This document shows positions 9,821-48,408 of a stretch of DNA of 64,000 nucleotides, piece after piece (positions within the stretch are counted from its first letter, which is position 1; each line of letters begins with the position of its first letter). The DNA lies in the NCBI RefSeq assembly GCF_900086585.1, contig NZ_FLKM01000009.1, positions 620,001-684,000 of the forward strand, given 5' to 3'. Origin of the DNA: Emergencia timonensis. GTDB taxonomy: Bacteria > Bacillota > Clostridia > Peptostreptococcales > Anaerovoracaceae. Below the pieces are notes generated by a model. That model was not told where the DNA came from, did no database searches, and saw only the letters and a list, made by a program, of their open reading frames with translations. A program made the position numbers and the translations under genes.

Positions 9821-10753
9821 ATGGCATTTTTAGAATTGAACAAAGATAAAAACTTACGAAGGGACGAGACGCCTTTTGAGGAACAGATCAGAGATTACTG
9901 GGGAGACTGGGGTATCAGTTCCCAGTGTGCGCCGCTGAAAAGCGTCCTGCTCAGAAGGCCGGGCAGTGAAATCAATGAATTCAGCTGGGAAGAAGCCAGA
10001 TTCAGGGAAGGCATCGACCCCGATAAATTCAGAGAGGCTCATCAACGCCTGGTGGATTTGTATGAGGAAAACGGCGTCAAGGTTTACTTCCTCGACGAAC
10101 AGAGGGAAGACCGTCCCAACGCCGTTTACTGCCGCGACCTGATGTTCATGACGCCGGAAGGTGCCATCATCGCAAGACCGGCTCTGCCTGTGCGCAGAGG
10201 GGAAGAAGTGGCTATGGCAAAGGCTCTGGCGGCTTTGAATATCCCCATCGTCAAGACCATCACTGGCACAGGCACCTTTGAGGGTGCGGACTGTCTGTGG
10301 GTTGACAGGAAGACGGCAATTCTGGCCAGAAGCTCCAGAACCAACGAAACCGGTTACAACCAGGTTGCCCAGGTGCTGAGAGAGCAGGGAGTGGAGACGA
10401 TTCTGACTGTGCCCATCCCTTATACCAATGCCCACCTGGACGGCATCATGAATTTTGTCGATACCGACAAGGCCATCGTCAACACCAGACAGGTGCCGTA
10501 TGACGTGGTGGAATATCTGATGAACAGGGGCTACAACATCATCGACGCGCCGGATCAGGATGAAGCCAGGTTCTCCCTGGGGCTCAATATCGTGGCGCTG
10601 CGTCCGGGCGTGGTCATCCAGGCACAGGGAAATCCGAAGACAAAGGAGGCCCTGGAGAAAAACGGCGTCGAGGTCATCAGCTTGGACTTTGACGAGATTT
10701 TGAAGGGCTGGGGCTCTGTACACTGCTGCAGCGCCACTTTGGCGAGAGGATAG
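9821..10753 (+). CDS. Arginine deiminase/amidinotransferase-superfamily enzyme (paralogue 1)
   Basis: 310 residues of the pentein guanidino-modifying superfamily. Catalytic positions are visible: FEGAD with Glu154/Asp157, HLDG with His205, and Cys302 in SVHCCSATL near the C-terminus. A further conserved stretch is VYCRDLMFMTPEG (about residue 103). Such enzymes hydrolyse a guanidino group to a ureido group plus ammonia, or transfer an amidino group. The protein is shorter than catabolic arginine deiminase (about 400 residues) and closer in size to amidinotransferase or peptidyl-free deiminases. It lies 6 nt before a paralogue that lacks the aspartate. The free substrate is unknown. Confidence 0.85.
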   Translation: MAFLELNKDKNLRRDETPFEEQIRDYWGDWGISSQCAPLKSVLLRRPGSEINEFSWEEARFREGIDPDKFREAHQRLVDLYEENGVKVYFLDEQREDRPNAVYCRDLMFMTPEGAIIARPALPVRRGEEVAMAKALAALNIPIVKTITGTGTFEGADCLWVDRKTAILARSSRTNETGYNQVAQVLREQGVETILTVPIPYTNAHLDGIMNFVDTDKAIVNTRQVPYDVVEYLMNRGYNIIDAPDQDEARFSLGLNIVALRPGVVIQAQGNPKTKEALEKNGVEVISLDFDEILKGWGSVHCCSATLARG

Positions 10754-10762
10754 GAGGATATG

Positions 10763-11692
10763 ATGGAAAAATTACATACATTCAGAGAAGATTTGGAAAA
10801 AGTCTGGGGCGACCAGTGGAGCGTGACCTCAGAAATCGGCAAGCTGCGTTCGGTGCTGATGCATCGGCCGGGAAAGGAAATCGAAGGGATCACCGATCCG
10901 TCAAAGATTTATTTCCGTGATTTCATCGACGTGGAGAAAGCCAGATGGGAGCACGACCAGCTGGCACAGGTTTACAGAGATCACGGGATCGAGGTCAACT
11001 ATGTGGAAGAGATGGATCCGGGCTGTCCCAATGCCATGTACTGTCACGACCTGATTCTGGGCACCCCGGAGGGGGTCATTGTCACCCGGCCGGGCATCGA
11101 AATCAGACACAAGGAAGTGAAGTATGCTGCCCAAAAGGCTGCGGAACTGGGCGTGCCTATCGTCAAAACCGTCCACGGCAAGGGTATCTTTGACGGCGCC
11201 TGCGCTACCTGGGTTGACAAGGAAACGGTCATCGTCGGCACCGGTTCCCGCTGCAACGCGGAAGGGCTGAAACAGGTAAGCGATACTTTCCGAGACATGG
11301 GTGTGAAGAACATTATCACTCTCTCCATCGCCAGAAACCAGAACCACCTGGACGGCTTCCTGTCCATCGTGGACACCCACGTGGCCGTGACCTATCCTTA
11401 TATCACGCCGGACATCATCTACGAGGAACTGGAGAAGAGGGGCTTTGAATTTGTGGAGATCCCTGCCTTTGATGAGAAGATCAACTTCGCCGCAAACTCC
11501 GTAGCTTTGGAGCCGGGCAAGATCGTCATGCCGAAGGGAGCGCCGAGGACTGTGGAATTACTGAACAAAAAAGGCATCGAGGTCATCGAGCTGGATCTTG
11601 AGGAAATCAAGAAAGGCGGCGGTTCCGTCCACTGCCTGACGGCTTTCCTGAAGAGAGACGATATCCCTGTCTACGAAGTGAAAGAGGACTAG
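10763..11692 (+). CDS. Arginine deiminase/amidinotransferase-superfamily enzyme (paralogue 2, altered active site)
   Basis: 309 residues, clearly paralogous to the preceding gene (YCHDLILGTPEG, HLDG His195, GGSVHCLT Cys291). At the position of the guanidinium-binding aspartate it reads FDGAC, with Cys147 replacing Asp. The loss suggests a different substrate, for example a ureido compound or another amidine, or a non-catalytic partner in a heteromer. ATG 10763 is preferred over ATG 10760 because AGGAGG ends at 10757. It is followed within 3 nt by the PLP-enzyme gene. Confidence 0.82.
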   Translation: MEKLHTFREDLEKVWGDQWSVTSEIGKLRSVLMHRPGKEIEGITDPSKIYFRDFIDVEKARWEHDQLAQVYRDHGIEVNYVEEMDPGCPNAMYCHDLILGTPEGVIVTRPGIEIRHKEVKYAAQKAAELGVPIVKTVHGKGIFDGACATWVDKETVIVGTGSRCNAEGLKQVSDTFRDMGVKNIITLSIARNQNHLDGFLSIVDTHVAVTYPYITPDIIYEELEKRGFEFVEIPAFDEKINFAANSVALEPGKIVMPKGAPRTVELLNKKGIEVIELDLEEIKKGGGSVHCLTAFLKRDDIPVYEVKED

Positions 11693-38806: not shown

Positions 38807-38940
38807 CATGTCCATAAGTTCTGATTAGGTTTTTGATTTTCTTCTGATGGTTTCGCGGAACTTCATTCAGGTAGCTTAAAGGTATTGTAACAGGTATCGT
38901 CATTGTGATAAACTATGAGAAAGGAAGAGGAGGATTGGCT

Positions 38941-39474
38941 ATGGCTAAGGGGAAGCTGAGAAAAATGTTGGGGAGCGTGGAATCAAAAGCAAGTATTGAC
39001 TTGATGAATCTGATCGAGACGCAGAGCAAGATTACGTTAGGGATCTGGGCAGTCACCTATGCAAAAGATCATTATTTAGCGATCTATGAAGAGGTTTGTC
39101 CTGCAGAGCGGCGGCTGAGAGAGATTGTAACAGCCTGTGAAGAATATCTGCAGGAAAGCAGGAAGTTGAGCGAGGTTAAGCCTCTGATCAGAGAGGCCGG
39201 GCTGATTGGGCGTGAAATCACCGATAACCCAGTCGGCCAAGCGGCAGCACGTGCAATTTCCGCAGCATGTGCCGTGATGCAGACGCCGACCAATGCTCTT
39301 GGCTTTCTGTTCTATGGTGCGGCGGCCGTCGCCTATAGCCGTGCAGGCTTGACACAGCCAGCGGAGATTTATGATGAATTGGCCGAGAAAGAATTGGGAC
39401 AAGCGCTGAATTCTCTGCAGAAGATTGCAGTCTGCAATGAATCGAACCCTGTGAAGATTAAATGGAACTGCTGA
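38941..39474 (+). CDS. Imm5-like immunity protein (orphan)
   Basis: 177 residues from ATG 38941 with GGAGG upstream. ITLGIWAVTYAKDHYLAIYEEVCPAERRLREIVTACEEYL, then NPVGQAAARAISAACAVMQTPTNALGFLFYGAAAVAYSRAGL, is the all-helical pattern of the Imm5 (pfam14423) putative immunity family. Imm5 proteins usually neutralise polymorphic toxins; no toxin or secretion gene is beside it, so it is an orphan. It is monocistronic, ending at a terminator shared with the GntR gene. It could be a general stress or DNA-binding helix bundle instead. Confidence 0.75.
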   Translation: MAKGKLRKMLGSVESKASIDLMNLIETQSKITLGIWAVTYAKDHYLAIYEEVCPAERRLREIVTACEEYLQESRKLSEVKPLIREAGLIGREITDNPVGQAAARAISAACAVMQTPTNALGFLFYGAAAVAYSRAGLTQPAEIYDELAEKELGQALNSLQKIAVCNESNPVKIKWNC

Positions 39475-39550: not shown

Positions 39551-40198
39551 TTATAATATTTCGTGATGCGCATTGGTAGGTGACCAATGGACATTAACCA
39601 TATAATTGTATAGCCCGGCACTGTCTTTCTCTTTAAATAGTTTTAAAATTTCACGGTGCTCGTCATTAATCAGAGCCAGGTACTCCTTGCTTCTACTAGC
39701 CTCGTCCTTAGAAAATCCTCTGGTGAAAAATTTACTCTTTAGTCTGGATATAGTATCCTCTAAAACCTCATTATCACATTTTTCAATATACACCAGATGG
39801 AATAGGTCTTGTTGTGTTAAGTACATCTCGTAGTTGTCGGTTTTGATGGCCAAATCCATGCTCTGGATATAGAAATCCATGCGAGATAAATCTTTATCAG
39901 TTAAAATATTGCAAGTCATCTGAGCAGCAATACCGTCCAGGGCGCCGATTACAACATATAACTCTGAAGCTTCCTTTTCTGAAACACCTTTTAAAACAAA
40001 GCCTTTTCTTGGCACATTATCCAGAACACCTTCGCAAGATAACTGAATCAAAGCCTCTCTGACGGGAGTTCTGCTTACAGATAGTTCCTGTGAAATTGCA
40101 GTCTCATTAATGCGCTGAGAAGGAATAAGCTTTCCCTCTAAAACTTGTTCTGTAATGTAGCTGTATACATGGTCTTTTAGTGTCTTGTATTTTTTCAT
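39551..40198 (-). CDS. GntR/FadR-family (FCD domain) transcriptional regulator
   Basis: 215 residues from ATG 40198, with GGAGGAATT upstream; the longer frame into the intergenic region is not conserved. The winged helix (LKDHVYSYITEQVLEGKLIPSQRINETAISQELSVSRTPVREALIQLSCEGVLDNVPRKGFVLKG) is followed by an FCD ligand domain with EASELYVVIGALDGIAAQM. It is divergent from a dimethylargininase operon whose promoter lies inside an inverted-repeat operator. It probably represses the operon until a substrate or product binds. Confidence 0.92.
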   Translation of the reverse strand: MKKYKTLKDHVYSYITEQVLEGKLIPSQRINETAISQELSVSRTPVREALIQLSCEGVLDNVPRKGFVLKGVSEKEASELYVVIGALDGIAAQMTCNILTDKDLSRMDFYIQSMDLAIKTDNYEMYLTQQDLFHLVYIEKCDNEVLEDTISRLKSKFFTRGFSKDEASRSKEYLALINDEHREILKLFKEKDSAGLYNYMVNVHWSPTNAHHEIL

Positions 40199-40302
40199 AC
40201 AATTCCTCCAAATTGGTAAGTCTCCGTTTAATGTAACCATAATAGCACAAAATATGGAAAAAAGGAATAAAAATATATATTTGACAGAATTAACAGAATA
40301 CA

Positions 40303-40331
40303 TTGACAAAATATAATATACGGTGTATAAT
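40303..40331 (+). promoter_or_regulatory. Sigma-A promoter of the dimethylargininase operon
   Basis: Perfect TTGACA (40303-40308), 17-bp spacer, perfect TATAAT (40326-40331), 64 bp before the first ATG. Such a strong promoter would need repression, in line with the operator arms that cover it. Confidence 0.88.
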
Positions 40332-40365
40332 CCTCTATAATAAAAATTGTATATTATACACCGTA
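40319..40365. promoter_or_regulatory. Inverted-repeat operator TACGGTGTATAAT / ATTATACACCGTA
   Basis: Arms at 40319-40331 and 40353-40365 are exact inverse complements of 13 bp, separated by 21 bp. The left arm includes the whole -10 box. This is the expected position for the divergent GntR/FadR-type regulator to block transcription. Confidence 0.82.
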
Positions 40366-40395
40366 AGAATTGATGAAGAAAAGGAGAAAAGTAAA

Positions 40396-41172
40396 ATGAA
40401 AAAGTTTAACCATGTAATCGTGAGAAGACCGTGTAAAGCAATGGTAGAGGGCATTACCTCCGTACCTGAATTAGGCAAGCCTGATTATGAACTGGCATTA
40501 AAACAGCATGACGCTTATATCGAAGCACTGAAACAATGCGATGTTGATGTGACAGTTCTGGAAGCTGACGAGAGATACCCTGACTCCTGTTTCGTAGAGG
40601 ACCCGGCACTGATTACGAGAAAGTGTGCAATCATCACGAATCCTGGTGCAGCATCGAGAAACGGTGAGAAAGACGAGATCGTAGGAGCAGTAAAGAAATT
40701 CTTCTCTGACGATCAGATTGAATACATCAAAGCGCCTGGTACCCTGGAAGGCGGAGACGTCATGATGGTTGGCGACCACTTCTATGTTGGAAGATCTGCA
40801 AGAACCAACGAGGAAGGCATCAGACAGCTGACAGAAATCCTCGCCAAATATGATATGACTTGCTCTGAAGTAAAGCTGGAGAAAGTATTGCACTTGAAGA
40901 CAGGTGTCAACTATTTGGAAAACAACAACATGCTGGTATCAGGAGAGTTCATCGAGAAGCCGGATTTTGAAAAATACGACAAAGTTGTCATTCCAGAGGA
41001 AGAAGCCTATGCAGCAAATTGCATCTGGGTCAACGATAAAGTCATCGTGCCTGAAGGTTATCCGGCTGTTTTAGAGGCGGTAAAAGGTATGGGGTATGAA
41101 ACCTTGCTGGTAGATACGTCAGAATACAGAAAATTGGACGGCGGCCTGAGTTGTCTGTCACTTAGATTTTAA
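40396..41172 (+). CDS. ddaH: Dimethylargininase (DDAH)-like amidinohydrolase
   Basis: 258 residues from ATG 40396 (AAGGAG upstream). Start FNHVIVRRPCKAMVEGITS, DERYPDSCFVEDPALI (about residue 63), LEGGDVMMVGDHFYVGRSARTNEEGI with the guanidino-binding Asp (about 119), the His in LEKVLHLKTGVNYLENN (about 166), and the nucleophile Cys in DGGLSCLSLRF at the C-terminus. DDAH hydrolyses N-methylated arginines to citrulline plus methylamines. The length matches DDAH (about 255-280), and all catalytic residues are present, unlike paralogue 2 in the sigma-54 cluster. It heads an operon with an aminotransferase, a symporter and a dehydrogenase. Confidence 0.88.
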   Translation: MKKFNHVIVRRPCKAMVEGITSVPELGKPDYELALKQHDAYIEALKQCDVDVTVLEADERYPDSCFVEDPALITRKCAIITNPGAASRNGEKDEIVGAVKKFFSDDQIEYIKAPGTLEGGDVMMVGDHFYVGRSARTNEEGIRQLTEILAKYDMTCSEVKLEKVLHLKTGVNYLENNNMLVSGEFIEKPDFEKYDKVVIPEEEAYAANCIWVNDKVIVPEGYPAVLEAVKGMGYETLLVDTSEYRKLDGGLSCLSLRF

Positions 41173-41181
41173 TTGAGATAA

Positions 41182-42363
41182 ATGAGATGGGAGATGAAGG
41201 ATTTGAAGAGTCCGTACATAGCAAAGAGACATTGGGATTTTGAAGAGGCTGCTCTGAGCAAGACCAATGAGATGGTAAAACGATATGACGATGTGATCGA
41301 TCTCAGCATAGGCGATCCGGATTACCCGGCCGATAAGGGATGCATCGACAAAATGCATGAAGAAGCTTTGGCAGGACATACAAGATATACAGAATTCCTG
41401 GGCGATGAGGATTTGAGACGGGAAACAATCAAACAGTATAAAGAAGATTACGGATTTGACTTCGACGAAGATGAAATCATCATCACTGCAGGCGGCACCC
41501 ACGCCATGTATCTGACTATGGAAGCAATTCTCGATGAAGGTGATGAAGTCATCGCTATTGCGCCGTATTATATCTATTACCAACCGCAAATTGAACTGCC
41601 AAGAGGGAAGCTGGTAGTCTACAACACACGCAGCGAAGACAACTTTGATGTGGATCTGGCAGAATTTGAAAAACACATTACAAGCCGCACGAAGGCTGTA
41701 ATCATTAATTCTCCAAATAATCCAAGCGGTAAGGTATACAGCCAGGAAAACGTCAGGGGGATACTGGAAATGGCCGAGAAATACGATTTTCTGGTCATCG
41801 CTGATGATATTTATGGAGCATTGAACTATACCGACAATAAAAAGGCGATTTGTTCCTATGAAGAGCGGCCAAAACGAGTGATTACGATATACAGTTATTC
41901 GAAAGATTACTCCATGACTGGGTTAAGACTAGGACACGTTATCGCTGATAAGGAATTGATTGCTACTATGAGACGAGTGAATGAAGCAGTCAACTTCACC
42001 ATTAACTCTATGTCTCAGAGACTAGGCATCGCAGCGATTAAGGGTAGAAAGGAAATCCAGAAAGGGTTGTACGAAGAGTACTATAAGAGGGTGATGTATC
42101 TCTATGAACGCATACAAAAAATGAAGAATATCACCTGTACGAAACCAGAGGGTACTTTTTATGTCTTTGCTAACATCAAACAGACAGGCATCAGTTCTAT
42201 GGACATCTGGGAAAAAATCCTCGATGAAGCCCATGTGTTGGTGCTGCCGGGTAGCGGATTTGGTGAAGCGGGAGAAGGCTATATCCGCATTGCATGCACA
42301 GTAGGTATCGATACATTGAAGGAAGCCTTTGACAGATTGGAGAAAATGAAGATTTTTAAATAA
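41182..42363 (+). CDS. Aminotransferase class I/II, PLP-dependent
   Basis: 393 residues (ATG 41182; ATG 41194 is an alternative because GGGAG lies directly before it). Opening DVIDLSIGDPDYPADKGCI, the PLP region TAGGTHAMYLTMEAIL, NSPNNPSG (about residue 174), ADDIYGALNY (cofactor Asp/Tyr) and the lysine in IYSYSKDYSMTGLRLG (about 237). It lies 9 nt after the dimethylargininase gene. It may transaminate the amino acid produced by that enzyme (citrulline or a derivative) to an oxo acid, matching the dehydrogenase at the end of the operon. The substrate is inferred only from context. Confidence 0.88.
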   Translation: MRWEMKDLKSPYIAKRHWDFEEAALSKTNEMVKRYDDVIDLSIGDPDYPADKGCIDKMHEEALAGHTRYTEFLGDEDLRRETIKQYKEDYGFDFDEDEIIITAGGTHAMYLTMEAILDEGDEVIAIAPYYIYYQPQIELPRGKLVVYNTRSEDNFDVDLAEFEKHITSRTKAVIINSPNNPSGKVYSQENVRGILEMAEKYDFLVIADDIYGALNYTDNKKAICSYEERPKRVITIYSYSKDYSMTGLRLGHVIADKELIATMRRVNEAVNFTINSMSQRLGIAAIKGRKEIQKGLYEEYYKRVMYLYERIQKMKNITCTKPEGTFYVFANIKQTGISSMDIWEKILDEAHVLVLPGSGFGEAGEGYIRIACTVGIDTLKEAFDRLEKMKIFK

Positions 42364-42400
42364 ACTATTGCCTGATATAGAAGAAAGTGAAAGGTGAAAT

Positions 42401-43831
42401 ATGAATATTGGTATTATAGACTGGATCATTATAGCAATATATCTTGCAGGCATGCTGGTAATTGGCTTTATTGCAAAAGGCAAAATCGAAACAATGGATG
42501 ATTTCATCCTGGGAGGAAGAAGATTTAATAGATGGGCCTTAATCGGCACGATTCTGGCTACAATGGTAGGATCAGGCATGTTGATGGGCGCTGTGGGAAA
42601 TGTGTACACCAGTGGAGCAGAGAGTTCGGCTTTCTGGATTTACATAGGCATGGGCATCGGTCTGGTCACAATGGGAATCTGGAGCAAGGCTATTAGAAAT
42701 ACCAACGCCAGGTCATTGGCAGAGATTACGTCTGTTTTCGGCGTATCTACAAGACTGGCTGCGGCAATTGTCGTTTCTATTTATGCTGTTGCTTTGGTAG
42801 CAATTAACATTGCCGGTCTTAGAACGATTATTGTCTACGTGTTCAGCGGAATTAATATTTCGATTCCTGTAGCGACGATCATCGCTGCGGCAATTTCTAT
42901 CGCTTATACGGCAATGGGCGGATTCTTTGCAGTCGTTTGGACAGATGTTGCGCAGTTGGGCATTATGATTCTCGGCGTATTTATTATTGGTCCGATTATC
43001 GGTTTGACTATGGTAGATGGAGGTATGGACACGATTATTACTACTTATGAAGCAGAGGGGATGACGATCACGAATCCTTTGGCAGGAGGCGTGACTGTGG
43101 GAATTGTCGGAACGGTACTGACTTACTTCCTGACATCGCCTGGCGATCCGACCATGCCACAGAGGGCTTTATCAGCAAAAGATGCCAAGACGGCGAGATT
43201 TTCTTTTACGACGACGGGAATCATAGCGCTGCTCTTCGGAGTTTCCATTCTCGTCATCGGTGGTGCAATCCATGTCTTGATGCCGGGAATCGAGGCGAAA
43301 GATTCCGTGCTGCCATTGTTCATTGCAACGTATTATCCGCCGGTTATCAAGGGAATCTGCTTGGCAGGAACAGTAGCTGCTGTCATGTCCTCCTTTGACT
43401 CCTTCCTGATTTTGGCAACGACTCACATCATGTATGACATCGGAAGAACAATCAAACCAGATATGCCAGAAGAAAAGATTTCAAAAGCGCTGCCGAAATT
43501 GACAATTATTATCGGCATACTTGGTATCATCGTGGCGTTGTTCATTACAAGTCTGCTTGATTATCTGACCGCGGTATTCAGCATCGTCGGTTCAGCTTTA
43601 GTGCCAGTGTTGGTAGCTGCCCTGTTCTTTAAATATAAGACGTCAAAGAGAGCTGCTACCTTATCCATTATCCTCGGCGGCGGCATCCCGGCGGTTCTAT
43701 TCTTTACCGTAGGATATGACGTACCGTTGGGCGATCCGACATTTATCGGTGTGGGAGCATCTATTTTGACTTTGATTATTGGCTCACTGATTTGGAAGGA
43801 TAAAGTCAGCGTAGAAGAGAAAGCGGCATAA
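42401..43831 (+). CDS. Sodium:solute symporter (SSS family)
   Basis: 476 residues, about 13 helices. Opening GIIDWIIIAIYLAGMLVIGFIAKGKIETMDDFILGGRRFNRWALIGTILATMVGSGMLMG, containing the family's DFxLGGRR motif, and FFAVVWTDVAQLGIMILG with the W-T-D-x-x-Q signature near residue 185. It probably imports the operon's substrate (methylated arginine, or a related guanidino amino acid) with Na+. It is followed by the dehydrogenase gene after 21 nt. Confidence 0.9.
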   Translation: MNIGIIDWIIIAIYLAGMLVIGFIAKGKIETMDDFILGGRRFNRWALIGTILATMVGSGMLMGAVGNVYTSGAESSAFWIYIGMGIGLVTMGIWSKAIRNTNARSLAEITSVFGVSTRLAAAIVVSIYAVALVAINIAGLRTIIVYVFSGINISIPVATIIAAAISIAYTAMGGFFAVVWTDVAQLGIMILGVFIIGPIIGLTMVDGGMDTIITTYEAEGMTITNPLAGGVTVGIVGTVLTYFLTSPGDPTMPQRALSAKDAKTARFSFTTTGIIALLFGVSILVIGGAIHVLMPGIEAKDSVLPLFIATYYPPVIKGICLAGTVAAVMSSFDSFLILATTHIMYDIGRTIKPDMPEEKISKALPKLTIIIGILGIIVALFITSLLDYLTAVFSIVGSALVPVLVAALFFKYKTSKRAATLSIILGGGIPAVLFFTVGYDVPLGDPTFIGVGASILTLIIGSLIWKDKVSVEEKAA

Positions 43832-43852
43832 GCTTAGTAAGGTGGTGTTAAT

Positions 43853-44779
43853 TTGAAATTTTGTCTAATTGATGCAGGTATTTTTATAGATAAACCGGAA
43901 CTATTGGATCCGTTGAGGGCCATAGGCGAAGTAGAAGTCTTCAATGGCATACCTGCAGGAACGGAAGAAGTTATTGATCGGGCAGGTGATGCCGACGTTA
44001 TCGCTTTCGGGCTGATGCAGTTTACTGAGGAAATGCTGGATGCTCTCCCAAAATTGAAGGTACTTCAATTTATCGGCACAGGCATGTGGAACTTTGTCAA
44101 TGTCGATTACGCTGAGAGCAAAGGAATCAGAGTGCTCAATATTGACGGTTACGGAAGTAATGCGGTAGCGGAGTTTGCAACAGCAATGGCTCTATCTCTG
44201 GCAAAAAATATCCCTCCTGCCGACAGGGTATTGAAAGAGGACAGATGGACCATCGACGGTTTGATGGGTAAGGAAATCAAAGGATCTACCGTCGGGGTCG
44301 TCGGCACTGGGAGCATTGGGCGCTTATCCGCAGAAAAGTTTGCAGCACTGGGAGCTGAAGTCATAGCCTGTGATATCTATGAAAGTGAGTATTTAAAAGA
44401 AAATTACAATATTCAATATAAATCCATGAAAGAAGTTTTTATGGAGGCTGATATTGTAACCTTACATATGAAAGTAACGGAAGAAAATGAAAGGATCATC
44501 GATCATAAATTATTATCGCTGATGAAAAAAGACGCACTTTTAATCAATGTAGCCAGAGCGGAATTGGTCAATACAGAAGATTTATATAAAGCGTTGATTT
44601 CGGGGAATCTGGCTGGCGCAGCCATCGATGTATATGACAGCGAGCCGCCAACGGCTAGGGATTATCAGCTCGCTCAGTTGAAAAATGTCATCGCAACACC
44701 TCACATTGGCTACTATACCCAGGAAGCGAATGACAACTCAATCAAAATGGCGGTCTCCTCTATCTTAGCCTCTCTATAG
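43853..44779 (+). CDS. D-isomer-specific 2-hydroxyacid dehydrogenase
   Basis: 308 residues from TTG 43853 after GGTGGTG. GSTVGVVGTGSIGRLSAEKFAALGAEVIACDIYES is the NAD-binding Rossmann motif (about 140-173), LLINVARAELVNTEDLYKAL carries the catalytic arginine region and ATPHIGYYTQEAN the catalytic His (about 283). Family enzymes reduce 2-oxo acids to D-2-hydroxy acids, or the reverse. It is the last gene of the dimethylargininase operon, where it may dispose of the oxo acid from the aminotransferase and regenerate NAD+. Confidence 0.9.
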   Translation: MKFCLIDAGIFIDKPELLDPLRAIGEVEVFNGIPAGTEEVIDRAGDADVIAFGLMQFTEEMLDALPKLKVLQFIGTGMWNFVNVDYAESKGIRVLNIDGYGSNAVAEFATAMALSLAKNIPPADRVLKEDRWTIDGLMGKEIKGSTVGVVGTGSIGRLSAEKFAALGAEVIACDIYESEYLKENYNIQYKSMKEVFMEADIVTLHMKVTEENERIIDHKLLSLMKKDALLINVARAELVNTEDLYKALISGNLAGAAIDVYDSEPPTARDYQLAQLKNVIATPHIGYYTQEANDNSIKMAVSSILASL

Positions 44780-44796
44780 GACTTAGGTGGAGTCTG

Positions 44797-44826
44797 AAAA
44801 AGGAATGTTTGGCATCATTCCTTTTT
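44797..44826 (+). terminator. Terminator of the dimethylargininase operon
   Basis: AAAAAGGAATG (44797-44807) and CATTCCTTTTT (44816-44826) form a perfect 11-bp stem with an 8-nt loop, then CTTTTT. Confidence 0.9.
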
Positions 44827-44941
44827 CTTTTTGCAATGGTAGCAAAAGGGAAAATTGTTAAGAAGCCCCGGTTTTAGGGCAAAGGGTATCGCCGTAAGGG
44901 CATGTACCAAAAAGTTAAAGGAAATAAATTCGAAAATTGAC

Positions 44942-46254: not shown

Positions 46255-48408
46255 ATGAAAAAATTAAGAAAGCTGATGGCACTGTTGCTGGCAGTGAGTC
46301 TGATTGCTCTGATGGGGGTGACTTCTTTTGCTGATAATATCGTTCCTGGTACAGAAGAGAAGGATCTCTGCTTGAACTGCAAAAGCGCAGAAGAAGGACA
46401 TGTTCATGACGATAGCTGCTACAACCATTCCTGGGATGACGGTCAGGAGATTATGGCAGCCACCTGTACAGAAGATGGTGAAAAACTGTTTACTTGCACA
46501 ATTCCTGGCTGCAATGCGACTAAGACTGTGCCTGTTTTGGCAGGCCATGCCTGGAATCAAGGTGAGAATACTGTAGCTCCAACTTGTACAGAGAATGGGA
46601 TAAAACAGTACGCCTGTACCGCGGAGGGTTGTGAAGCAACCGAATCTGTAGAGATGAAAGCCCTGGGCCATGACTGGGACGAAGGAACTGTTACCACGCC
46701 AGCCACCGACTCGACCAGTGGTGAAAAATTATTTACATGCCAGCGCGAAGACTGCGACGCGACAAAGACTGAAGTGATTCCTGCCAAATATACGTATGTA
46801 TCAGGAGAGAGCAAATGGAAAACTAACGTAATTTCCTTTGCACCGACAAGCGAAGGCATCACTTACGAGATCACGTATACCTCTACTAAAACCAAAGAGG
46901 TATTTACGCAGGCAGAAGTTGATGCAATGAGCAAGGAAGAAATTAAAACGCACAAACTCTTTGTCTCCAAAATCACATACACCATTCCGAAGGACTTTGA
47001 GGCAAATAAGGTAAACATTTTTATGGGAGATGCAATCAACAACGCTGCAAATTATATGACCTATCTTCCAGGAGATGCAGCCCCGATTCAAATTGCCATT
47101 GTAAACCATTCTTCCCATGGATATGGATATCAGAATGGCAGCTTTGCCGTTACGACAGAAGACTATCAGCAGTATTTTGACAAAGGCTGGGCAACACAGT
47201 CAAACGCAATCGGATATGACAGCCAGAATATTCCAGAGGAATACCTTGCAGTCAGAAGCAAAAATGGAGCCATACAAAGTCTGTATGGTGTAACAAGTAC
47301 ATCAAAAGTGTCAAACGAACAGATGACAGATGCTGTGTTGGGCGCAAAACTAGTAGAAGCCGGTTATTCTAATGGTATTGATGATTTACACAAGTATTAT
47401 CTGGATTACTATAATGAAAAGAAAAATACCAGCTATACAGCTCTTGAACAGCTGCCAGACAGCGAAATCGCAGTACTTTTGACATCTGGAAACACAACAT
47501 CTGTTAAGGAACAGAATACAGAGATTGCAGAACTGTTATACAACTATTTCTACAATCATCTATACAGTCTGACTCCTGCAGGTGCTGGCTATCCTGGACA
47601 TGAAAACAATGCTTATACGATAGGCTCGCTGATGAGAGCTTACCATAATAAACAAGCTACAGTATTTGATCAGTCTATCTCTAAAGCATGGGGCGATATT
47701 GCCGCATCTGCAGAGGATGGAGCCAATTCCTACCTGTGGGAAGGCTTTGAAGCTTGGATTAACAGTCCGGATACACGAAACACATATCAGAATTACAACT
47801 ATGGATTCACTGCAGGTTTTTCACTAGAACGTACAGATACAACCTATAGTGTAATAACCAAATACTTTACATCCACAGACGGTAGTGCACCAGTCTTAGA
47901 CGGCTCTGTGACCAGGGTAGACCAGGTTGCAATTGGTGTCGGTAATACGGCAAGCGTAGTACCTGAAGCTGCATGGAACAGGTATGATGGGAATGACTAT
48001 AAACTTGAAGAACCAGCAAAATTGAGTTTGGTTGCTGTAGTAGATCCGGCATCTAACGTGATTGTTCTCAATTATTACCGAAACGTGTCAGGTCAGGTAA
48101 TCGTTCCACCAGTAGATCCGCCGGTTGACCCACCTGTGGATCCAGATCCGAACGATCCGCAGCCGCTGCCGCCAGATGAGAACTTAGAAGATCCTGAGAA
48201 GCCTGATAATCCGAAAGACAATCCAAACCAGCAGCTTCCGCCGGACGAGCATTTGAAGGAGGATGACAACGTAAAAGCGACGAAGTCAAATCATCCGGAT
48301 CAGCCGAAAACCGGCGATGAATCACAACTGGCTCTGTATTTGATTCTGACTGTAGGCGTCAGTGGAGCATTGGCTCTTACGGTGAGAAGAAAAAGATCGA
48401 GTAAATAA
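46255..48408 (+). CDS. Secreted LPXTG-like cell-wall-anchored surface protein
   Basis: 717 residues. Signal peptide MKKLRKLMALLLAVSLIALMGVTSFA, then three His/Cys/Asp-rich repeats of an E-H-x-W-D...ATCTE(D/N)G...F/YxCxxxGCxAT pattern (about 45-175). A large domain with no recognised homology follows (about 180-610). After a proline-rich spacer (PPVDPPVDPPVDPDPND) come a sortase-like QPKTGD signal, a hydrophobic segment (ALYLILTVGVSGALALTV) and RRKRSSK. It sits behind a c-di-GMP-I-like riboswitch, the usual setting of adhesins in Clostridia. Role inferred: attachment or biofilm. Confidence 0.85.
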   Translation: MKKLRKLMALLLAVSLIALMGVTSFADNIVPGTEEKDLCLNCKSAEEGHVHDDSCYNHSWDDGQEIMAATCTEDGEKLFTCTIPGCNATKTVPVLAGHAWNQGENTVAPTCTENGIKQYACTAEGCEATESVEMKALGHDWDEGTVTTPATDSTSGEKLFTCQREDCDATKTEVIPAKYTYVSGESKWKTNVISFAPTSEGITYEITYTSTKTKEVFTQAEVDAMSKEEIKTHKLFVSKITYTIPKDFEANKVNIFMGDAINNAANYMTYLPGDAAPIQIAIVNHSSHGYGYQNGSFAVTTEDYQQYFDKGWATQSNAIGYDSQNIPEEYLAVRSKNGAIQSLYGVTSTSKVSNEQMTDAVLGAKLVEAGYSNGIDDLHKYYLDYYNEKKNTSYTALEQLPDSEIAVLLTSGNTTSVKEQNTEIAELLYNYFYNHLYSLTPAGAGYPGHENNAYTIGSLMRAYHNKQATVFDQSISKAWGDIAASAEDGANSYLWEGFEAWINSPDTRNTYQNYNYGFTAGFSLERTDTTYSVITKYFTSTDGSAPVLDGSVTRVDQVAIGVGNTASVVPEAAWNRYDGNDYKLEEPAKLSLVAVVDPASNVIVLNYYRNVSGQVIVPPVDPPVDPPVDPDPNDPQPLPPDENLEDPEKPDNPKDNPNQQLPPDEHLKEDDNVKATKSNHPDQPKTGDESQLALYLILTVGVSGALALTVRRKRSSK

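What the first reader, a model, noticed from the sequence alone, without database searches (positions are those of the whole stretch)
39551..44779. GntR-controlled dimethylargininase operon: possible methylarginine catabolism
A complete DDAH active site is encoded with an aminotransferase, an SSS symporter and a D-2-hydroxyacid dehydrogenase, under a very strong promoter covered by a 13-bp inverted operator. Import of methylarginine, hydrolysis to citrulline, transamination and reduction to the hydroxy acid would be a coherent path, and I do not know it as described.
Basis: partly seen in the sequence, partly recalled or inferred. Interest (0 to 1): 0.7.

Follow-up and report, generated by a model that had tools for sequence, protein, structure and literature searches.

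The report
Methylarginine-degrading operon in gut Clostridia
A gut Clostridia genome carries a switchable four-gene unit that very probably takes up and breaks down methylated arginine, with two extra enzymes that may turn the product into a hydroxy acid; the core enzyme is a known kind, the extra pair is new to me and was seen in only a few relatives.

Summary
Window 39551-44779 has a divergent GntR/FCD regulator, a 12-of-12 consensus promoter, a 13-bp inverted operator over the -10 box (0 of 2000 shuffles reach it), then DDAH, an aminotransferase (AT), an SSS symporter and a D-2-hydroxyacid dehydrogenase (D2HDH), closed by a terminator. DDAH is 60% identical to the P. aeruginosa enzyme with its catalytic residues kept, but scores below NCBI's equivalog cut-off (397 against 450 bits). 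The genome has two more DDAH operons with other transporters. The order DDAH-AT-SSS-D2HDH recurs in four further lineages, and close relatives of this AT and D2HDH were found almost only there, so the four genes look like one functional unit. Best reading: uptake and hydrolysis of methylarginine (well supported by homology), with AT plus D2HDH as an NADH-consuming side branch, most likely on citrulline (inferred). Main rival: citrulline goes to the arginine deiminase pathway for ATP. Extra result: an undescribed GME-fold hydrolase ('NYG') occurs in 21 of 297 genomes of the order, all 21 with DDAH, 16 with it within 5 kb. Bacterial use of DDAH is known; the AT/SSS/D2HDH extension and NYG were not in the papers my searches listed.

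The parts
39551..40198 (-). GntR/FCD regulator (215 aa), divergent to the operon
   Evidence: Pfam GntR 49.8 and FCD 53.1 bits, above cut-offs; no NCBIfam cut-off met
40303..40331 (+). sigma-70 promoter TTGACA-17-TATAAT
   Evidence: 12 of 12; 25 of 79 DDAH upstream regions of named loci have 11 or 12 of 12, against 0.4 expected from shuffles (some loci are close kin)
40319..40331 (.). operator arm 1, TACGGTGTATAAT, over the -10 box
   Evidence: exact 13-bp inverted repeat; 0 of 2000 shuffles; a 15-mer holding it has no second 0-mismatch site in the genome
40353..40365 (.). operator arm 2, ATTATACACCGTA
40396..41172 (+). DDAH, dimethylargininase homologue (258 aa)
   Evidence: 60% identity to P. 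aeruginosa DDAH, catalytic residues kept; NF045658 397 bits, cut-off 450
41182..42363 (+). class I/II aminotransferase; start may be 41194 or TTG 41203
   Evidence: Pfam 217 bits; in one clade with the other operon copies, support 98/92
42401..43831 (+). SSS sodium:solute symporter
   Evidence: Pfam SSF 107 bits; TIGR00813 112 bits, under cut-off 184
43853..44779 (+). D-2-hydroxyacid dehydrogenase, TTG start
   Evidence: Pfam 182 bits; Arg, Glu, His motif positions kept in the five copies aligned
44796..44827 (+). intrinsic terminator-like stem closing the operon
   Evidence: 12-pair stem then T run

Best explanation
A GntR-controlled methylarginine catabolic operon. A methylarginine (ADMA or monomethylarginine from digested protein) enters, most likely by the SSS symporter; DDAH hydrolyses it to citrulline and a methylamine (about 0.85 likely, from homology and active site). 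The aminotransferase and the D-2-hydroxyacid dehydrogenase then convert the amino acid, most likely citrulline, to a 2-oxo acid and on to a D-2-hydroxy acid, moving nitrogen to an oxo-acid acceptor and regenerating NAD+ (about 0.4, inferred). The regulator, probably a repressor, sits on two inverted half-sites over and behind the -10 box and leaves when its ligand, perhaps the methylarginine or citrulline, binds (inferred).
For: DDAH: 60% identity, catalytic residues kept. Unity: DDAH-AT-SSS-D2HDH in the same order in the window, G083 (L180), L079 Bacilliculturomica massiliensis, L048/L049 and L066, at 55-90% protein identity. The D2HDH matched at E 1e-60 in 2 of 297 genomes of the order, both beside DDAH, and in 1 of 391 of the class, the own genome; these searches score only the best first-look candidates. 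The AT of the operon copies is a clade apart from the common paralogue. D2HDH catalytic residues conserved. Three DDAH operons in one genome, each with another transporter type. Operator and promoter; L073, whose GntR is 70% identical and which is of the same genus (its contig has the length of G287 C79), has the same operator core with 0 mismatches, the other 22 GntR-linked loci have 2 to 5. Outside evidence: E. lenta lowers colonic dimethylarginine in gnotobiotic mice and its genome has DDAH (PMC11149096, passages); Eggerthella sinensis (L102) and two Gordonibacter (L104, L105) have GntR-DDAH-APC loci here.
Against: No substrate was tested for any enzyme. DDAH, AT, SSS and D2HDH meet no NCBIfam cut-off in the rows shown. 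76 of 80 named DDAH loci show no AT/SSS/D2HDH, 13 of the 80 with little downstream sequence, so DDAH does not need them. In the E. lenta mice citrulline did not change (PMC11149096). The regulator is not constant: the G083 copy has a sigma-54-type regulator gene (PrdR model 313.6 bits, cut-off 795) in place of GntR, and no GntR was seen near the L048/L049 copies. Operons can move as blocks, so shared order alone does not show a shared pathway. The operator has no demonstrated regulon.
Confidence: 0.47

Rival explanations
1. DDAH feeds citrulline into the ordinary arginine deiminase pathway (OTC and carbamate kinase, encoded elsewhere) to make ATP; AT, SSS and D2HDH import and reduce another amino acid and are only co-regulated.
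For: The own genome has arginine deiminase (503.6 bits, arcA cut-off 489.1 met), OTC (378.5, cut-off 280.85 met) and carbamate kinase (415.7, cut-off 358.25 met) in one run, L131. G169 has DDAH, a second DDAH, and relatives of these three (82-84% identity) on one strand in one cluster (L214); L122 has two carbamate-kinase-like genes near DDAH. 22 of 80 named loci have an APC permease near DDAH, none of these with AT or D2HDH.
Against: Close relatives of this AT and D2HDH were found almost only in DDAH operons, which fits poorly with an unrelated substrate.
Confidence: 0.3
2. AT acts directly on methylarginine, giving dimethylguanidino-oxovalerate, which D2HDH reduces; DDAH is a parallel route.
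For: AT lies next to DDAH; mammals transaminate methylarginines by AGXT2 (recalled, no call). AT resembles the arginine-type PLP enzyme GntC (283.8 bits, under its cut-off 415).
Against: The common paralogue scores as high on GntC (296-298 bits), so this says little.
Confidence: 0.12
3. The DDAH homologue acts on another guanidino compound or on arginine, not on methylarginine.
For: Below NCBI's equivalog cut-off; the genome is rich in PF02274 proteins (26 matched stretches, several per protein).
Against: 60% identity with the catalytic residues kept; two other proteins of the genome already match the arginine deiminase models over their whole length.
Confidence: 0.1

Closest known systems
P. 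aeruginosa DDAH with regulator DdaR
   Same: DDAH homologue at 60% identity, catalytic residues kept; methylarginine metabolism
   Different: DdaR is listed as a PAS-domain regulator (PMC8694187, passages); here GntR/FCD, plus AT, SSS and D2HDH. The primary paper (Lundgren 2017) was not held and not read.
Eggerthella lenta DDAH and loss of colonic dimethylarginine
   Same: Gut anaerobe with DDAH; relatives have GntR-DDAH-APC loci (L102, L104, L105)
   Different: No AT/SSS/D2HDH seen at those three loci
Arginine deiminase pathway (ArcA, OTC, carbamate kinase)
   Same: Hydrolysis of the guanidino group to citrulline; clustered with DDAH in one relative (L214)
   Different: The window DDAH scores 27 bits on arcA, cut-off 489
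CtlX putative citrullinase
   Same: Same superfamily, citrulline metabolism
   Different: 23.8 bits against cut-off 334; CtlX has Asn where guanidino enzymes have Asp (PMC9007349, passages)
Reductive amino acid fermentation (amino acid to oxo acid to R-2-hydroxy acid; pathway recalled)
   Same: Transaminase plus D-2-hydroxyacid dehydrogenase
   Different: No CoA-transferase or dehydratase in the operon; PF06050 (2-hydroxyacyl-CoA dehydratase) matches lie elsewhere in the genome (4 matches)

Membership tests
Dimethylargininase (DDAH) | Cys-His-Glu catalytic residues and the Asp/Glu/Arg substrate residues | tested here: met
   all eight kept; residue list partly recalled, triad described in PMC11659421 passages
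Dimethylargininase (DDAH) | NCBIfam NF045658 equivalog cut-off 450 bits | tested here: not met
   397.3 bits over 254 of 254 positions; so I call it a DDAH homologue
Dimethylargininase (DDAH) | Hydrolysis of ADMA/MMA to citrulline | not testable with these tools
   needs an enzyme assay
Arginine deiminase (ArcA) | TIGR01078 cut-off 489.1 bits | tested here: not met
   27.3 bits
CtlX citrullinase | NF046062 cut-off 334 bits | tested here: not met
   23.8 bits
GntR/FCD regulator | GntR winged helix plus FCD domain | tested here: met
   both above Pfam cut-offs
GntR/FCD regulator | binds the operator at this locus | not testable with these tools
   same operator core found with the nearest GntR, L073, only
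D-2-hydroxyacid dehydrogenase | NAD domain and catalytic Arg, Glu, His | tested here: met
   Pfam; NVARAEL, EPP and TPH present in the five copies aligned; motif meaning recalled
PRK06348 aminotransferase | NF004975 cut-off 549 bits | tested here: not met
   457.9 bits; two common paralogues score 558 and 583.8
SSS symporter | Pfam SSF cut-off | tested here: met
   107.4 bits
SSS symporter | TIGR00813 superfamily cut-off 184 | tested here: not met
   112.1 bits; substrate unknown

The most novel reading that the evidence does not exclude
Methylarginines are a full fermentation substrate for gut Clostridia: DDAH handles ADMA/MMA, the associated 'NYG' hydrolase handles symmetric dimethylarginine (for which I know no hydrolase), and AT plus D2HDH run the carbon chain as a reductive, NADH-consuming branch to D-2-hydroxy-5-ureidopentanoate, possibly on to 5-ureidopentanoate by the genome's 2-hydroxyacyl-CoA dehydratases.
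Probability: 0.1. Interest if true: 0.75.

Novelty: new variant of a known kind. Interest (0 to 1): 0.5.

Why it matters
ADMA is a blood marker and an inhibitor of nitric oxide synthase. A regulated, repeated DDAH system in gut anaerobes names genes that could remove it in the gut, gives products to look for (a citrulline-derived hydroxy acid, methylamines), and points to an undescribed partner hydrolase.

Tried and rejected
Whole-genome regulon of the operator: a 15-mer with up to 2 mismatches gave 11 sites, two of them the arms at this locus; the reversed control gave 12, so no regulon is shown. Arginine deiminase or CtlX identity for the window DDAH: rejected by cut-offs. AT function from solved structures: generic aminotransferases lead the list; D2HDH likewise, phosphoglycerate and lactate dehydrogenases. 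Gene conversion among the three DDAH copies: copies 2 and 3 are near-identical, the window copy differs from them by 2 to 22 bases in every 60-base block; no converted tract claimed. Upstream neighbours in L057 and L059 look hydrogenase-related by eye, not followed.

Papers. In the rows listed (capped: 20 of 26,262, 20 of 436, 20 of 36, 12 of 50, 10 of 17; in full for 17, 19, 29, 68 with none, and 71) I saw none on AT or D2HDH with DDAH or on an SDMA hydrolase. One search lists PMC2962901 (an L-amino acid oxidase paper that names ureido-valerate compounds), not read. The library holds open-licence papers only, so this is weak evidence of absence.

Errors of mine: one row (L079) was on the wrong strand and rows lacked the first residues; redone as A3. 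A1 aligns unrelated proteins and served only to tally families: 53 neighbour proteins that I picked as long enough from the 80 loci. The 80 loci are the best 80 of 186 confirmed relatives, so they lean to the window's kin. L048 and L049 are near copies and count as one lineage. The labels TynB, YfcC, M20am, RocB, NYG and PGERW are mine; NCBIfam cut-offs are met for the tyramine oxidase subunit B and amidohydrolase models, not for YfcC, and RocB rests on recall.

Full report
What is there. The window lies in a 4.66-Mb genome (contig C9, 620001-684000). The nearest named DDAH relatives include Emergencia, Bacilliculturomica and Anaerovorax, so I take the host as an Emergencia-like gut Clostridia (inference). 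Gaps between the four genes are 9, 37 and 21 bp by the ORF list, with no terminator-like site in them.

The DDAH. Identity to P. aeruginosa DDAH is 152 of 254 positions; 14 of 17 active-site positions looked at are the same, the catalytic ones included. NCBI's equivalog cut-off is missed (397.3 against 450). The genome has two further copies at 90% identity: one in a run with an OCD-family gene, a YfcC-like carrier, an M20 amidohydrolase, an ADI-like protein and a RocB-like protein (L128), one followed by an APC permease (L129); a GntR gene lies near each. DDAH at E 1e-40 or better occurs in 58 of 297 genomes of the order; the matches include a second DDAH clade at about 50-57% identity.

The operon as a unit. 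Of 80 named DDAH loci (the best 80 of 186), 4 have AT, SSS and D2HDH, in the window's order: L048, L049, L066, L079; 13 of the 80 have under 3.7 kb downstream. G083 is a further copy (L180). With L048 and L049 taken as one, that is five lineages with the window. The D2HDH matched in 2 of 297 genomes at E 1e-60 and 1 of 391 in the class search. For AT, 89 of 297 genomes match at E 1e-80, but only the window, G083 (78%) and G146 (56%) exceed 50% identity. A tree of 28 rows, rooted at the midpoint, puts the five operon ATs that I entered in one clade (98/92), G146 beside them (100/100). On the 7.8-kb G146 contig no DDAH, SSS or D2HDH was seen, but it begins 170 bases before AT.

Regulation. Of 79 DDAH upstream regions with room, 25 hold a promoter of 11 or 12 of 12 matches; shuffles give 0.4 (kin among the loci are not independent). 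GntR homologues lie near DDAH in 23 of 80 loci. Only L073, with the GntR nearest to the window's (70%) and of the same genus, has the window's operator core exactly; the other 22 differ by 2 to 5 bases, and many show TATATTGTATATAAT-like sites over the -10 box. The regulator can change: G083 has a sigma-54-type gene instead.

What it most likely does. Shown: gene content, conservation, promoter and operator. Follows from family knowledge: DDAH makes citrulline and a methylamine. Inferred: import by SSS, AT and D2HDH on citrulline, ligand and mode of GntR. Elsewhere DDAH goes with carriers: an APC permease in 22 of 80 loci, ABC ATPases among 11 of the 53 neighbour proteins scanned. In G169 DDAH lies in a row with relatives of carbamate kinase, arginine deiminase and OTC (L214; the own-genome queries meet NCBIfam cut-offs). 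So citrulline fermentation is a fair general theme, and AT plus D2HDH a rare extension.

A partner hydrolase. An ADI-like protein of about 290 aa ('NYG', from its first residues) is in the own second DDAH operon and in 9 of 80 named DDAH loci, among them L048, L049, L066 and L079, but was not found in the window or G083 operon. In the order it is in 21 of 297 genomes; all 21 have DDAH (58 of 297; hypergeometric P 4e-17, which ignores kinship), and 16 of 21 have it within 5 kb of a DDAH gene, start to start; of the other 5, four lie 110-584 kb away and one on another contig. Its model (pLDDT 90, pTM 0.89) matches arginine deiminase (Z 31.9, rmsd 2.5, 284 aligned) and P. aeruginosa DDAH (Z 28.5, rmsd 2.3, 252 aligned). 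Its family keeps Glu, His and Cys in EGGD, CLHLM and GGPTC and the Asp in the THD stretch, but has Met where arginine deiminase has the second Asp (FTRD and HLD of guanidino enzymes from PMC9007349 passages). It meets no NCBIfam cut-off. Its substrate is unknown; symmetric dimethylarginine is a guess.

Literature. PMC11149096 (passages): E. lenta colonisation lowers colonic N,N-dimethylarginine, and a DDAH gene is noted; citrulline did not change. PMC8694187 (passages): DdaR listed for regulation of methylarginine metabolism in P. aeruginosa, citing Lundgren 2017, which I could not read. PMC9007349, PMC10294761, PMC6273216 and PMC11659421: passages only.

Verdict. Real, conserved and coherent; the enzyme at its heart is known, its AT/SSS/D2HDH company and the NYG link are not in what my searches listed.

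Noticed in passing
L128:8517-9389 (G000 C8), L048, L066, L079, L073 and others: Undescribed GME-fold hydrolase 'NYG' in 21 of 297 order genomes, all 21 with DDAH, 16 within 5 kb.
   Followed up: partly
window 9821-10753 and 10760-11692; also L130, L132-L135: Two of about ten ADI-like proteins (about 310 aa) of this genome, often in pairs; above the Pfam ADI cut-off, no NCBIfam cut-off met for the two in the window; substrates unknown.
   Followed up: partly
L136 (G000 C8:1644000-1663000): OCD-like gene, two aminotransferases, an arginine deiminase family gene and a carbamoyltransferase in one run; one aminotransferase is a distant paralogue (44%) of the window AT.
   Followed up: partly
L196, G000 C9:710102-711265: Common AT paralogue with one in-frame stop inside the match; pseudogene or assembly error.
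   Followed up: no
L180 (G083 C43): Beyond the operon copy lie a glycyl radical enzyme (nearest models PFL2-3 and hydroxyproline dehydratase, both under cut-off) and an activase, then a permease-like gene (by eye).
   Followed up: partly
window 38905-39471: Imm5-like putative immunity protein gene just before the GntR gene.
   Followed up: no
window 46255-48408: Large protein with a signal-like start and a QPKTG-type sorting-like end (by eye).
   Followed up: no
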